From Euryarchaeota archaeon UBA13 (GTDB lineage Archaea; Thermoplasmatota; Poseidoniia; Poseidoniales; Poseidoniaceae), in NCBI GenBank assembly GCA_002495945.1, contig DAHU01000111.1, forward strand, positions 1 to 11,001: a DNA stretch of 11,001 nucleotides. The letters run 5' to 3'. The position numbers and the translations under genes were made by a program. Positions 5 through 9,081 of this stretch are shown piece by piece; position 1 is the first letter of the stretch; every line of letters starts with the position of its first letter. The notes below the pieces were generated by a model, which ran no database searches, was not told the DNA's origin, and saw only the letters and a program-made list of their open reading frames with translations.

Positions 5-27
5 TCGGGACAGATTTTATCATCTCA
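5..27 (+). promoter_or_regulatory. Shared upstream element, copy 1 (TATA-like core)
   Basis: The 18-base core TCGGGACAGATTTTATCA at 5-22 matches the cores at 359-376 and 1390-1407 except for one base (G at 13 where the others have T). Its TTTTAT stretch (15-20) lies 30 nt before the ATG at 45, measured from first T to A. That suits an archaeal TATA box serving a nearly leaderless transcript. No Shine-Dalgarno sequence precedes the ATG. The copy lies at the window edge, so its left flank cannot be fully compared. Confidence 0.55.
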
Positions 28-44
28 GCAAACCATCTTACAAC

Positions 45-299
45 ATGCCTGGGGAGCTCAGTAAGGAAGAGCCGCCTGAACTTGAAATACAGCAAGTACA
101 GGAACCGACAGAAATTAGAAAGAAAGGTTACGAAGAACCTCCCATACTCACGATAGGTTGGTTCATACTATGGTTAATCAAAAATGCTATTGTGTTGTTA
201 ATCATATTGTTGCTGTTAGAATATGTTATCGGACCAATATTGGATCATATCATTTTTTCTGGTTGCTGGGAGACTTTGCCTGGAGCAGACTGTTCCTAG
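45..299 (+). CDS. Small single-pass membrane protein, unknown function
   Basis: This 84-residue protein matches no family I recognise. Residues 1-33 are polar and rich in Glu and Pro, with EEPP occurring twice (residues 8-11 and 30-33). One long hydrophobic helix follows at about residues 35-60, then a short tail with two Cys (74 and 83). RKK at residues 25-27 suggests the N-terminus is cytoplasmic and the Cys-bearing tail is outside. The gene starts 30 nt after the TTTTAT of the shared upstream element, with no Shine-Dalgarno sequence, which supports the ATG at 45. Its upstream element matches those of the genes at 407 and 1445, but its protein lacks their IPPPVTEENKA block. It may therefore be a co-regulated partner rather than a paralog. 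The reading frame and promoter are persuasive; the function is unknown. Confidence 0.6.
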   Translation: MPGELSKEEPPELEIQQVQEPTEIRKKGYEEPPILTIGWFILWLIKNAIVLLIILLLLEYVIGPILDHIIFSGCWETLPGADCS

Positions 300-350: not shown

Positions 351-384
351 CTTGTGATTCGGGACATATTTTATCAATATCAAA
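351..384 (+). promoter_or_regulatory. Shared upstream element, copy 2 (TATA-like core)
   Basis: The 34 bases at 351-384 align with 1382-1415 with only four mismatches: three adjacent ones at 356-358 and one at 379. The stretch TCGGGACATATTTTATCAAT (359-378) is identical in the two. TTTTAT at 369-374 begins 38 nt before the ATG at 407, which leaves room for a leader of about 10 nt if transcription starts some 25 nt downstream of the box. Similarity stops after TCAAA, so this is a discrete element and not part of a long duplication. Confidence 0.6.
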
Positions 385-406: not shown

Positions 407-661
407 ATGGCGGAACTCAATTTAGACATTCCACCACCTGTCACAGAAGAAAATAAAGCCGATTATTTAGCTGAGTTGGAAAAATATAGAGAAGCGGAAG
501 AGTGGATAAAAAAGCACTCAATTAACTATGCTAAGGAAGAGGTGCAAGTAGTAAATAATAAAACTTCTAACCTATTTGATGCATTTATGGAATTGTTGTT
601 TAAGTTTATATTGAGTATTTTTACTTACGTCGCCATATTATTACTATTGATTTTTACTTAA
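407..661 (+). CDS. Small membrane protein with IPPPVTEENKA head (paralog A)
   Basis: This is an 84-residue protein of unknown function. Residues 8-38 form a charged, probably helical block (IPPPVTEENKA, then ELE, EAE, WI and KHS) that is 24/31 identical to residues 7-37 of the protein starting at 1445. A polar linker follows, then one hydrophobic helix at about residues 60-83 ending at the C-terminus, so it looks like a tail-anchored or single-pass protein. Of the 24 identical residues, 16 use different synonymous codons in the two genes. That is strong internal evidence that both are translated and under purifying selection. It follows the shared upstream element by a short leader and faces the convergent pdxH gene 40 nt away. 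An ATG at 395 also lies near the expected transcript start, but it is out of frame and gives only about 19 residues. Confidence 0.75.
   Translation: MAELNLDIPPPVTEENKADYLAELEKYREAEEWIKKHSINYAKEEVQVVNNKTSNLFDAFMELLFKFILSIFTYVAILLLLIFT
428..520 (+). repeat. Paralogous coding block, copy A
   Basis: These 31 codons pair with 1463-1555. The encoded peptides agree at 24 of 31 positions, and 16 of those 24 codons differ only synonymously (for example CCA/CCG, GTC/GTG, ACA/ACT, CAC/CAT). Similarity ends at the KHS residues, before the membrane segments. Confidence 0.7.
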
Positions 662-701
662 TTACACAGGTTGAAAATTGAAATTTAGGATGAAGACATG
701 C

Positions 702-1331
702 CTAAGGGTAAATCCTAGTTTTTGACCAATTGTTTTCCTCTTTACTCAGAATTATCCTCTCATGTAACCTAAACGGCTTACCATACCAATATTCTATTTT
801 ATCAACGAGTATTGTAAAACCTCCCCAAAATATCGGAGTTGGAACCTTTTTGTTAGAAAATTTCGCCTCATATTTACGAAACTCTTGATGCAGTCTTTCC
901 ATTGAAACTAACTCAGTGCTCTGTTTTGATGCCCATGCTGAGAGTTGGCTATTTCTCGGACGACTTTGATAGTACTCTTCGACCATGTCTCTGGGCATTT
1001 CAATTGCGGTTCCTTCAATACGCACTTGTCGACCTAATTGAGGCCACCATAATGTAGAAGAGGTCCGCTGGGTAGCGAAAATCTCTGACGCTTTGTTACT
1101 TTCTAAGTTTGTGAAGAAACCAATCTCCCTATCGTTGATGTGGCGCATTAGGACCATACGATTATGTGGATTGCCAGCCCTATCAACCGTCGCGAGATTC
1201 ATTGCATCAGGTTCTGCTATTCCCAAATCCTTCGCTTCCTGTACCCAATCGGTCAACAACTTAAGTGGTTGTTGTGGATTTATGGTGGCAAATTGAGATT
1301 CATATTCGTCCATGTTTACTTCGCTCGTCAT
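702..1331 (-). CDS. pdxH: Pyridoxamine/pyridoxine 5'-phosphate oxidase
   Basis: This 209-residue FMN enzyme oxidises pyridoxamine or pyridoxine 5'-phosphate to pyridoxal 5'-phosphate in the cytoplasm, the last step of bacterial-type PLP synthesis and a salvage step. The family's motifs appear in order: NRMVLMRHIND (58-68), FFTNLESNKASE (72-83), RQVRIEG (101-107), SRPRNSQLSAWASKQS (123-138), VPTPIFWGGF (163-172), RLHER (188-192) and a C-terminal TRIYP equivalent to the usual RLAP ending. Length is normal and the sequence is intact. A second Met at residue 7 is an alternative start. An AAATAATAA box (- strand, 1349-1357) lies about 22 nt upstream and suits a leaderless start at 1331. The gene sits between the two IPPPV paralogs on the opposite strand. 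Archaea generally make PLP with Pdx1/Pdx2 synthase, so a bacterial-type PdxH here suggests salvage and transfer from bacteria (inference). Confidence 0.93.
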   Translation of the reverse strand: MTSEVNMDEYESQFATINPQQPLKLLTDWVQEAKDLGIAEPDAMNLATVDRAGNPHNRMVLMRHINDREIGFFTNLESNKASEIFATQRTSSTLWWPQLGRQVRIEGTAIEMPRDMVEEYYQSRPRNSQLSAWASKQSTELVSMERLHQEFRKYEAKFSNKKVPTPIFWGGFTILVDKIEYWYGKPFRLHERIILSKEENNWSKTRIYP

Positions 1332-1381
1332 GAGTTAATGATATACTGTTATTATTTGTAGAAATGTATTGTTCAGCAACT

Positions 1382-1415
1382 CTTGTTTGTCGGGACATAT
1401 TTTATCAATTTCAAA
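1382..1415 (+). promoter_or_regulatory. Shared upstream element, copy 3 (TATA-like core)
   Basis: This is the third copy: TCGGGACATATTTTATCAAT at 1390-1409 is identical to 359-378, inside a 34-base block with four mismatches. TTTTAT at 1400-1405 begins 31 nt before the ATG at 1431 and 45 nt before the TTG at 1445. The 31-nt spacing matches copy 1 (30 nt). It overlaps the region upstream of pdxH, whose transcript leaves in the opposite direction from about 1331. Confidence 0.6.
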
Positions 1416-1444
1416 CGAGATATCCATTCAATGGAGGGGAATCT

Positions 1445-1849
1445 TTGAGAGAGTTGTTAGAGATTCCGCCGCCGGTGACTGAAGAAAATAAAGCTGAATA
1501 TTTACAAGAATTAGAGAGAATATCCGAGGCAGAGAATTGGATTGAGAAACATTCGGTTCGCAGTATAGAAAGTGAATCAATCGACAAAAATATACCAAAA
1601 AATAGTACTTTACCGGTTTTAGAACCAAAATTCCCTGATGACAAAAGAGTCCTTTCTCTGATTTTGTTAAGCATGTTGACATTATTTCTGTTTATTGTCG
1701 GCGCTGAATTCAATGGTGAGCCAGGTGAACTATATTGCTTAGGAATTTTTTGCTTATTTGTGGTTCTCGACGTTTTCGATAGACTTTCTAATGCGTTTCA
1801 ATGGTATCTGGCAGCATTGTCTCTATTCATTTTCATGATACTAATTTGA
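1445..1849 (+). CDS. Membrane protein with IPPPVTEENKA head (paralog B)
   Basis: This is a 134-residue protein of unknown function, read from TTG at 1445. Residues 7-37 match the block of the gene at 407 (IPPPVTEENKAEYL, ELE, EAE, WIEKHS). A polar linker follows, then three hydrophobic stretches at about 68-87, 97-112 and 118-134, where the paralog has only one. The TTG has a good Shine-Dalgarno sequence, GGAGG at 1433-1437. The frame is open back to an ATG at 1364, but that start would place the conserved promoter element inside the gene. An ATG at 1431 sits at the right distance from the element but is one base out of frame. One extra G in the GGGG run at 1436-1439 would join it to this frame and give MEGESLRELLE. 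So the gene either starts at TTG or carries a one-base deletion or sequencing error near its start. The shared block confirms the frame itself. Confidence 0.7.
   Translation: MRELLEIPPPVTEENKAEYLQELERISEAENWIEKHSVRSIESESIDKNIPKNSTLPVLEPKFPDDKRVLSLILLSMLTLFLFIVGAEFNGEPGELYCLGIFCLFVVLDVFDRLSNAFQWYLAALSLFIFMILI
1463..1555 (+). repeat. Paralogous coding block, copy B
   Basis: Partner of 428-520. The peptides are 24/31 identical with mostly synonymous DNA differences. The block begins at the ATT of IPPP and ends at the TCG of KHS. Confidence 0.7.
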
Positions 1850-2299: not shown

Positions 2300-2638
2300 A
2301 TGCCTCAAGGGACTAGCGAGGTTGAACCAAATCAATCTGAGGTTACATCCGATTTTTGGGAAGGTGTGGTGGTTGAACAAGCAAATCAAACCATGTCGAT
2401 TGTAGATTGCCCACACTGTAGCCGTAGATTGCGTATTCCAGAAACATACTCAGGTGGCTTAACTTGTCCGGGTTGTGTAAAATCGTTTGCCACAAAAAAT
2501 GGTTACCCCTTAAACAAACACGGAGTTGTTGTCAAAAGGAAAAGCAAAGATAATGTTGGGATTATGGATTTAATAATTCTAGAATTGGGAGTTTATCTGG
2601 TTGTAGGTTTCTTTGTCCTATTATTTGCCCTGGTATAG
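2300..2638 (+). CDS. Zinc-ribbon protein with C-terminal membrane helix
   Basis: This is a 112-residue protein. Residues 1-32 are acidic and polar. A zinc ribbon follows with two CxxC pairs, CPHC (37-40) and CPGC (56-59), joined by RRLRIPETYSGGLT, the spacing of small rubredoxin-like or MJ0042-like ribbons. A basic stretch (KRKSK, about 79-83) precedes one hydrophobic helix at about 88-112 that ends the protein, so the ribbon should face the cytoplasm. Zinc binding follows from the Cys pattern; the cellular role is unknown. Similar ribbon-plus-helix proteins are common in marine Euryarchaeota (recollection, not tested). The promoter region is an inverted repeat, suggesting dedicated control. 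The gene converges on the TPR gene with only 18 nt between the stops. Confidence 0.72.
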   Translation: MPQGTSEVEPNQSEVTSDFWEGVVVEQANQTMSIVDCPHCSRRLRIPETYSGGLTCPGCVKSFATKNGYPLNKHGVVVKRKSKDNVGIMDLIILELGVYLVVGFFVLLFALV

Positions 2639-4656: not shown

Positions 4657-5046
4657 ATGACGTTTGATTCAGACTACGAACCATGGTTCCAACCACCTGG
4701 ATTCATCATCGGACCTATATGGCTAATTCTCTACACAATGTTGGCGTTTAGCTTTGTTATCATGCTATCAAAACGTAATGAGTTACCAAGACCTTACCTA
4801 ATTATTGCTCTATTTTTAATACAGTTAATAGTGAATCTTAGGTGGCCGATGGTGTTTAATTCCGAAGAATATTTTATTTCACTATTGATGATTATCGTGA
4901 TGGTTGTCTTTACTGTAATTTACGCTGGTATGTTGTATGACACTGCAAAAGAGGCATCTATGCTAGTATGGCCATACATTGCATGGGTCAGTTTTGCTGG
5001 TTTAATCAATCTGGCATATCTACTAAATTCAAGACAACTCATCTAA
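4657..5046 (+). CDS. tspO: TspO/MBR family membrane protein, short form
   Basis: The 129 residues match TspO/MBR (tryptophan-rich sensory protein / translocator) from the end of the family's first loop onward. EPWFQPPGFIIGPIWLILY (8-26) corresponds to the usual WxPPxxxFGPVWxxLY, LIQLIVNLRWPMVF (54-67) to the LQLxLNxxWxxxFF segment, and WPYIAWVSFAGLINLAYLLN (105-124) to PYxxWvsfAxxLNxxixxLN. Four hydrophobic helices are visible (about 15-37, 45-63, 71-93, 101-124), whereas the family has five in about 160 residues. The missing one is helix 1, and an in-frame TAA at 4645-4647 shows it is not simply upstream. TspO proteins bind tetrapyrroles and sterol-like ligands and in some bacteria tune responses to oxygen or light. 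Whether this short form does is unknown. It overlaps the small gene on the other strand tail to tail by 8 nt. Confidence 0.85.
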   Translation: MTFDSDYEPWFQPPGFIIGPIWLILYTMLAFSFVIMLSKRNELPRPYLIIALFLIQLIVNLRWPMVFNSEEYFISLLMIIVMVVFTVIYAGMLYDTAKEASMLVWPYIAWVSFAGLINLAYLLNSRQLI

Positions 5047-9005: not shown

Positions 9006-9081
9006 GGGTAGGTAGCTTAGTTGGGAGAGCGCAGCACTGAAGATGCTGAGGTCGCCGGTTCAAGTCCGGCCCTACCCACCA
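9006..9081 (+). tRNA. tRNA-Phe (GAA), CCA encoded
   Basis: The cloverleaf is complete. The acceptor GGGTAGG (9006-9012) pairs perfectly with CCTACCC (9071-9077), and the D stem GCTT/GAGC has one G-T pair. The anticodon stem CAGCA/TGCTG flanks the loop CTGAAGA (9037-9043) with anticodon GAA at 9039-9041. The T stem GCCGG/CCGGC encloses TTCAAGT. A at 9078 is the discriminator and CCA (9079-9081) is encoded, so no CCA-adding step is needed. The loop has C32 and G37, the archaeal (and eukaryal) form of tRNA-Phe; bacterial tRNA-Phe usually has A37. There is no intron. It begins 52 nt after the RNase PH stop. Confidence 0.97.

What the first reader, a model, noticed from the sequence alone, without database searches (positions are those of the whole stretch)
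407..1849. Two-member family of small membrane proteins with a conserved IPPPVTEENKA head on different membrane anchors
The heads of the genes at 407 and 1445 agree at 24 of 31 residues, yet 16 of those 24 codons differ synonymously. That pattern means long divergence under protein-level selection. Past the KHS residues the proteins differ completely: one has a single C-terminal helix, the other three. A fixed cytosolic head on interchangeable membrane regions suggests the head binds a common partner. I recognise no described family with this motif.
Basis: partly seen in the sequence, partly recalled or inferred. Interest (0 to 1): 0.72.

Follow-up and report, generated by a model that had tools for sequence, protein, structure and literature searches.

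The report
Archaeal membrane proteins with shared head
An uncultured ocean archaeon carries small membrane proteins that begin with the same short piece and the same promoter-like DNA but end in different membrane parts, and relatives show that the front piece has been exchanged between genes; what the piece binds is not known.

Summary
It is not a two-member family. Twelve heads occur in 5 of 339 class-level genomes, all one genus of Candidatus Poseidoniaceae, in local clusters of 2-4; protein searches add 96 entries. Tails include single helices, multi-helix bundles, a zinc ribbon plus one or three helices, and a form with the head between helices. The start codons of all 12 headed genes lie 24-40 bases after a promoter-like element (TCGGGACAkATTTTATCA, 0-4 mismatches); 148 of 149 control ORFs have 6 or more. 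And front ends are exchanged: one gene carries the end of its neighbour's head (44 of 45 bases) on a zinc-ribbon tail 95% identical to another species' gene, switching at the KHS codons. Best reading: a mosaic family in which element plus head is a constant prefix on changing membrane modules. Family, element and mosaicism are shown; a cytosolic head docking to a common partner is inferred. Pfam, NCBIfam, PHROG, PADLOC and PDB comparisons gave no credible relative.

The parts
5..22 (+). Promoter-like element, copy 1 (TCGGGACAGATTTTATCA), in front of a headless small membrane gene
   Evidence: 0 mismatches, 22 nt before the ATG
45..299 (+). Headless small membrane protein under the same element: one predicted helix, short C-terminal end with two cysteines
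   Evidence: no head by profile
359..376 (+). Promoter-like element, copy 2
   Evidence: 0 mismatches, 30 nt before the ATG
407..661 (+). Headed membrane protein 1 (84 aa): N-terminal head, linker, one C-terminal helix
428..520 (+). Head of protein 1, IPPPVTEENK...KHS, 31 codons
1390..1407 (+). Promoter-like element, copy 3
   Evidence: 0 mismatches, 37 nt before the TTG
1445..1849 (+). Headed membrane protein 2 (134 aa): head, linker, three helices
1463..1555 (+). Head of protein 2, 31 codons, 24 residues as in protein 1
2300..2638 (+). Headless zinc ribbon plus one helix, homologous to the zinc-ribbon tails of headed genes in G044, G076 and G085

Best explanation
A modular family of small membrane proteins in one genus of Candidatus Poseidoniaceae. 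The constant unit is a 5' prefix: a promoter-like element (upstream box TCGGGACA plus TATTTTAT), a short leader, and a head of about 39 residues (IPPP, then one helix ending W-I-x-K-H-S). It is attached to changing membrane modules. Front ends move between paralogues by recombination that can resolve near the KHS codons, while selection keeps the head's protein sequence. Most likely mechanism: the genes are expressed together; each protein sits with its head in the cytosol; the head docks to one common partner, so that different membrane or outward-facing parts are presented through the same inner connection. Shown: the family, the shared element, head conservation, tail diversity, one mosaic gene at DNA level and one at protein level. 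Inferred: that the element drives transcription, the cytosolic location, the docking. Unknown: the partner and the benefit.
For: The first protein alone finds 12 heads in 5 of 170 family genomes; a profile built from those 12 finds no further strong head in 339 class genomes (the 12 score E 1e-17 to 1e-23, by construction). 96 database proteins; the head profile recognises all 108 pooled sequences, some of which repeat the loci. 31-residue heads 100% identical on four tail classes not joined by alignment (P0022, P0032, P0033, P0034). Mosaic gene in G076 with the switch at KHS; P0086 joins the first 25 residues of the P0019 type (24/25) to the P0077 type (31/35 over residues 26-60). Element 24-40 nt before the start codon of 12 of 12 headed genes with 0-4 mismatches versus 6 or more in 148 of 149 control ORFs, the exception being a headless zinc-ribbon gene inside a cluster; in seven genomes all 9 places with 0-1 mismatches lie in these clusters (placement). 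The zinc-ribbon tail matches something in 59 of 61 genus genomes, while heads occur in only 5, so the module mostly occurs without the head. More positive charge before than after the first helix that follows the head in 13 of 20 chosen sequences; in 17a two predicted helices and a basic stretch precede the head, which fits a cytosolic head.
Against: No partner identified, and docking could not be tested. Conserved head positions are not clearly on one helix face (p 0.03 to 0.11). AlphaFold confidence is modest (mean pLDDT 67 and 65, pTM 0.30 and 0.26). None of the 21 family genomes that are at least 90% complete carries a head; the carriers are 65-83% complete. In the zinc-ribbon group the head is less conserved than the tail (0.71 versus 0.82). 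In the G076 mosaic the leader and first part of the head are only 73% and 77% identical to the neighbour, so it does not show a recent move of the whole prefix. Charge pattern: 2 of 20 opposite, 5 ties; in 19a the second helix before the head scores just under my threshold (1.55 against 1.6), and without it the head would lie outside. Weak copies of the element (2-3 mismatches) also occur elsewhere: at up to 3 mismatches 51 hits in seven genomes against 11 for the reversed control, of which 13 lie at cluster genes; among 62 genus genomes one 1-mismatch place lies outside clusters, inside a long ORF of G065. Single-helix tail classes may be one fast-diverging family.
Confidence: 0.58

Rival explanations
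1. The head is a self-association helix: the paralogues bind each other and form mixed membrane oligomers, with no separate partner.
For: Clustered copies behind the same element; AlphaFold gives a single isolated helix after the PPP motif; conserved hydrophobic positions 19, 23, 26, 32, 33.
Against: The hydrophobic moment of the helix is not significant (p 0.20); the head is acidic (mean net charge about -4); no complex could be modelled.
Confidence: 0.3
2. The cluster is a conflict system (against viruses, competitors or mobile elements), with membrane modules diversifying under an arms race.
For: Patchy presence (5 of 62 genus genomes), contigs ending at or near the cluster, mosaic genes, two-cysteine C-terminal ends; general likeness to hypervariable archaeal islands such as VARTIG (PMC8416519, abstract and section 13 read).
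Against: No PADLOC model at E 0.01 for 8 of 9 cluster proteins, and one weak hit (E 0.0019, candidate model PDC-S05) in a repeat protein; no relative by two protein scans of viral contigs or in 50,697 phage records; no toxin domain found in the scans made.
Confidence: 0.25
3. Ordinary tandem duplicates: all tails are homologous but diverged beyond recognition, with no shuffling.
For: Several single-helix tails look alike by eye (acidic stretch, then one helix); class T0 chained otherwise different tails at z above 8.
Against: Zinc-ribbon tails and helix-head-helix forms are different architectures; identical heads sit on tails that are not joined by alignment; the G076 gene goes from 44/45 to 75/132 identity with its neighbour at KHS, and to 267/282 identity with another species' gene.
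Confidence: 0.1
4. The shared front is conserved for DNA or RNA reasons (transcription or translation start), not for the protein.
For: The upstream element is better conserved (88% over 34 bases between the two window copies) than the synonymous sites.
Against: Synonymous sites in the heads are near saturation while residues are kept; in 17a and 19a the head is internal, far from the start.
Confidence: 0.03

Closest known systems
Polymorphic toxin systems (PMC3482391, seen only in a search listing with the start of its abstract)
   Same: Constant N-terminal part joined to varying C-terminal parts by recombination.
   Different: The constant part here does not look like a secretion module; the variable parts are membrane segments; no toxin domain was found in the scans made, and immunity genes were not tested.
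VARTIG hypervariable module of Thermococcales (PMC8416519, abstract and section 13 read)
   Same: Archaeal, lineage-restricted, recombination-driven variability, function unknown.
   Different: No immunoglobulin domain in the 7 window proteins scanned; no large hub protein recognised; here each gene has its own copy of the element and head.
Mycoplasma variable surface lipoprotein families such as Vlp/Vsa (recalled, not looked up)
   Same: Conserved promoter and 5' coding region on divergent bodies.
   Different: There the constant part is a signal peptide and expression switches; here it is a predicted cytosolic head and switching was not looked for.
Zinc-ribbon membrane proteins of the same genus
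   Same: The ribbon of some tails is the same domain.
   Different: They lack the head; the headed forms look like a later combination.

Membership tests
Polymorphic toxin system | N-terminal trafficking or secretion domain | tested here: inconclusive
   The 12 heads have no Pfam match at E 1 and the charge pattern favours a cytosolic head in 13 of 20; no signal-peptide program was available
Polymorphic toxin system | Recognisable C-terminal toxin domains | tested here: not met
   Pfam on 2 headed proteins and PHROGs and NCBIfam on 10: no toxin; weak hits only, best TIGR00437 (ferrous iron transport) E 1e-4 in one member
Polymorphic toxin system | Adjacent immunity gene | not tested
   Neighbours were listed but not examined for this
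Polymorphic toxin system | Constant front joined to variable ends by recombination | tested here: met
VARTIG | Large protein with immunoglobulin domains and a hypervariable C-terminal domain | tested here: inconclusive
   No Ig match in the 7 window proteins scanned with Pfam; proteins of the other clusters were not scanned with Pfam
Known defence systems (PADLOC) | Match to a defence protein model | tested here: not met
   0 matches at E 0.01 for 8 of 9 cluster proteins; one weak hit (E 0.0019) to a candidate model in the repeat protein
Any curated family for the head | Match in Pfam, PHROGs, NCBIfam or PDB sequences | tested here: not met
   Pfam on 12 heads: none at E 1; full-length P0001 only a sub-threshold hit (PF19290, E 0.063, residues 9-51); PHROGs and NCBIfam on 10 full-length members give weak hits, positions shown for the first member only and mostly over its zinc ribbon; PDB: repeated Starmaker segments (E 0.0005, no single segment passing) and one E 5 hit

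The most novel reading that the evidence does not exclude
A promoter-plus-docking-head cassette that spreads by recombination and captures membrane modules, so that the archaeon keeps renewing its set of membrane proteins while keeping one fixed inner connection and one shared control: a modular membrane-diversification system for which my searches found no archaeal precedent.
Probability: 0.35. Interest if true: 0.75.

Novelty: new variant of a known kind. Interest (0 to 1): 0.55.

Why it matters
Marine Group II archaea are abundant and uncultured (general knowledge), and lineage-specific archaeal proteins of unknown role tend to be short and membrane-bound (PMC9258230, passages seen). Here a large orphan family gets an anatomy (element, head, seam, tail), a way it evolves, and a direct experiment: the 39-residue head can be used alone as bait for a partner. 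If the prefix reading holds, it is a compact example of how new membrane proteins arise by joining a ready-made promoter and docking piece to existing membrane modules.

Tried and rejected
Head as a known domain: rejected. Head in other groups: a phylum sample of 389 genomes from 155 genera gave only the window genome at E 0.001 (the other four carriers were evidently not drawn). In the class search 18 of the 23 listed genomes had only short partial matches at E 6e-4 to 0.05 (and G085 one such besides its two heads), mostly in long frames; I treat them as chance, but my attempt to read ten of them gave an alignment for only one. Viral origin: two protein scans of viral contigs without a relative and no phage record; six exact element matches in viral contigs were not followed and are about the number I would expect by chance (own estimate, no call). 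Empty-site comparison: the closest relative by one protein (G088, 98%) has a contig that ends 825 bases after that gene, so absence there is not shown; G095 has a related locus without heads on a 3.9 kb contig. The small membrane gene at 1958-2200, tried as a locus marker, lies in unrelated places in many other genomes. Headless copies of the CYGVC tail end: one strong match, in G050 and headed; three weak ones (E 0.016-0.71, G078 and G047) not inspected. Helix-face test: p 0.03-0.11. Tail class count depends on method: 7 groups with more than one member by BLAST, one of them a merged group of 67; 13 by shuffled-score clustering, of which P0009 (a damaged-looking entry) and P0037 (a shortened form) are doubtful. 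Seven proteins were dropped before that clustering (P0007, P0008, P0054, P0061, P0064, P0068, P0072). The 10 tail groups were made by hand from 81 of the 108 sequences. Structure search was not run because the models are of low confidence. Paper searches by general words did not list a description of this family; of the listed papers I looked into four (PMC5069720, PMC6393860 and PMC9258230 by passages, PMC8416519 by abstract and one section); the library holds open-licence papers only.

Full report
Observation. The block IPPP...KHS has 24 identical residues of 31, and 16 of the 24 use different codons. Synonymous differences are at saturation (pS 1.04), amino-acid-changing ones are few (pN 0.17). 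Past KHS the tails do not align. Hydropathy gives one helix in the first protein and three in the second. AlphaFold, at modest confidence (mean pLDDT 67), gives for the second an unstructured PPP stretch, a helix at residues 16-36, a low-confidence linker and three further helices. For a G050 relative with a one-helix tail it gives helices at 13-36 and 67-97.

Extent of the family. The first protein alone finds 12 heads in 5 of 170 family-level genomes: two in the window genome, two each in G044, G076 and G085, four in G050. A profile built from these 12 finds no further strong head in 339 class-level genomes; the five carriers all belong to the window's genus, of which 62 genomes are held. 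The carriers are 65-83% complete, and none of the 21 family genomes that are at least 90% complete has a head. So 5 of 62 may be an undercount, or the cluster may be rare. Three searches of a large protein collection returned 7, 85 and 4 proteins, a few named as MAGs of Poseidoniales, TMED248 or Thermoplasmatota; the head profile recognises all 108 pooled sequences. Some repeat the genome loci, and some are fragments or artefacts.

Tails. Tails include one helix; three or more helices with a GEPC-type loop; tails ending in GGGCYGVCGLSGWGGP; a zinc ribbon plus one helix (G076, G085); a zinc ribbon plus three helices (G044); and two forms (17a in G044, 19a in G085) with helices in front of the head. 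In 17a two helices precede the head; in 19a one does, and a second scores just under my threshold. Shuffled-score clustering gave 13 tail classes, two of them doubtful; 31-residue heads are 100% identical between classes T1, T3, T4 and T7. Some one-helix classes may be distant relatives of each other, so I do not insist on a number. The zinc ribbon also occurs without the head: in the window at 2300-2638, in G044 and in G095, and 59 of 61 genus genomes match the ribbon tail, many in open frames of about 265 or 835 residues. For the CYGVC end the only strong match in the genus is the headed G050 gene.

Promoter-like element. A 22-base repeat stands before three genes in the window. With up to two mismatches the pattern occurs three times in the window genome, all here, and the reversed control never. 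In seven genomes all nine places with 0-1 mismatches lie in these clusters, eight before headed genes and one before the headless gene at 45. Within 75 bases upstream, 12 of 12 headed genes have it at 0-4 mismatches, 24-40 bases before the start codon; of 149 control ORFs from 14 loci, 148 have 6 or more, and the exception (2) is the headless zinc-ribbon gene in the G044 cluster. Two cautions: the pattern came from the window copies, so the two window heads fit by construction; and control ORFs were taken from their first possible start codon. Weaker copies are not specific: at up to three mismatches seven genomes give 51 hits against 11 for the reversed control, 13 of the 51 at cluster genes, and one 1-mismatch copy in G065 lies inside a 924-residue ORF. 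The TATTTTAT part resembles an archaeal TATA box (general knowledge); that it is a promoter is inference. In some database proteins with over-long starts (for example P0043, P0051, P0056, P0074) the upstream residues look by eye like the translated element.

Exchange of front ends. In G076 two headed genes are neighbours. In the second, the 45 bases before the HS codons are 44 of 45 identical to the neighbour (24 of 42 to the G085 gene), but from the HS codons on it is 267 of 282 identical to the G085 zinc-ribbon gene and 75 of 132 to the neighbour. The leader and first part of the head are less alike (50 of 69 and 46 of 60 with the neighbour; 37 of 64 and 35 of 60 with G085), so the recent tract is short or the exchange has several layers. 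P0086 is a second mosaic, at protein level and from one metagenome contig: 24 of 25 residues like P0019, then 31 of 35 like P0077. Together with identical heads on tails that do not align, this shows that fronts and tails are recombined. Selection on the head is shown separately: pN/pS 0.17-0.54 in 45 pairs of 10 colinear heads, and heads more conserved than tails in 9 of 10 hand-made groups; the exception is the zinc-ribbon group (0.71 versus 0.82).

Setting. The first 2640 bases are AT-richer than the rest of the window (GC 0.381 versus 0.440). The window cluster and the G050 cluster start at a contig end, and the G076 and G085 contigs are only 3.4 and 4.9 kb. In the window, G044 and G085 the cluster lies beside the same 585-residue repeat protein and small membrane protein; in G076 those genes are on another contig; G050 carries its cluster near a GH1 gene. 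This fits a variable region, but I could not see one complete cluster.

Mechanism. Across the pooled heads W32 and P8 are invariant and P10, N15, Y19, L23, H36 and S37 nearly so; the head is acidic. Charges around the first following helix favour a cytosolic head in 13 of 20 chosen sequences, 2 against, 5 ties. A conserved peptide on changing membrane parts, behind a shared element, is best read as a docking piece. Self-association is the main rival; a role in conflict with viruses or competitors is possible but has no positive evidence. I could not identify the partner, and the helix-face test is at best marginal.

Novelty. No credible relative of the head was found in Pfam, PHROGs, NCBIfam, PADLOC or PDB sequences, and eight paper searches by general words did not list a description. 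In kind it belongs with mosaic families that join a constant front to variable ends, but it lacks a recognisable toxin domain (polymorphic toxins) and shows no Ig domain in the window proteins scanned (VARTIG). I therefore call it a new variant of a known kind.

Noticed in passing
window 45-299: Headless small membrane protein under the same element, with a short C-terminal end holding two cysteines (SGCWETLPGADCS).
   Followed up: partly
L016 2095-2442; P0013, P0059, P0063, P0070, P0071: Very conserved C-terminal end GGGCYGVCGLSGWGGP on tails with different numbers of helices, predicted outside the cell if the head is inside.
   Followed up: partly
window 702-1331: A pyridoxamine-phosphate-oxidase-like gene on the minus strand lies between the two headed genes; it was not seen in the stretches examined around the other four clusters.
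   Followed up: no
L016 2537-6412; L018 1-1929: Large proteins with ELWKSDGT repeats lie next to the head clusters in G050 and G076.
   Followed up: no
P0054 and P0064: P0054 ends in what I recall as translated sequencing-adapter letters, and P0064 joins a head to a piece with major-facilitator Pfam labels; both look like artefacts and were left out of tail clustering.
   Followed up: partly
window 4657-5046: TspO/MBR family gene (Pfam PF03073, E 1e-22).
   Followed up: no
window 9006-9081: tRNA-Phe (GAA) about 6 kb from the cluster.
   Followed up: no
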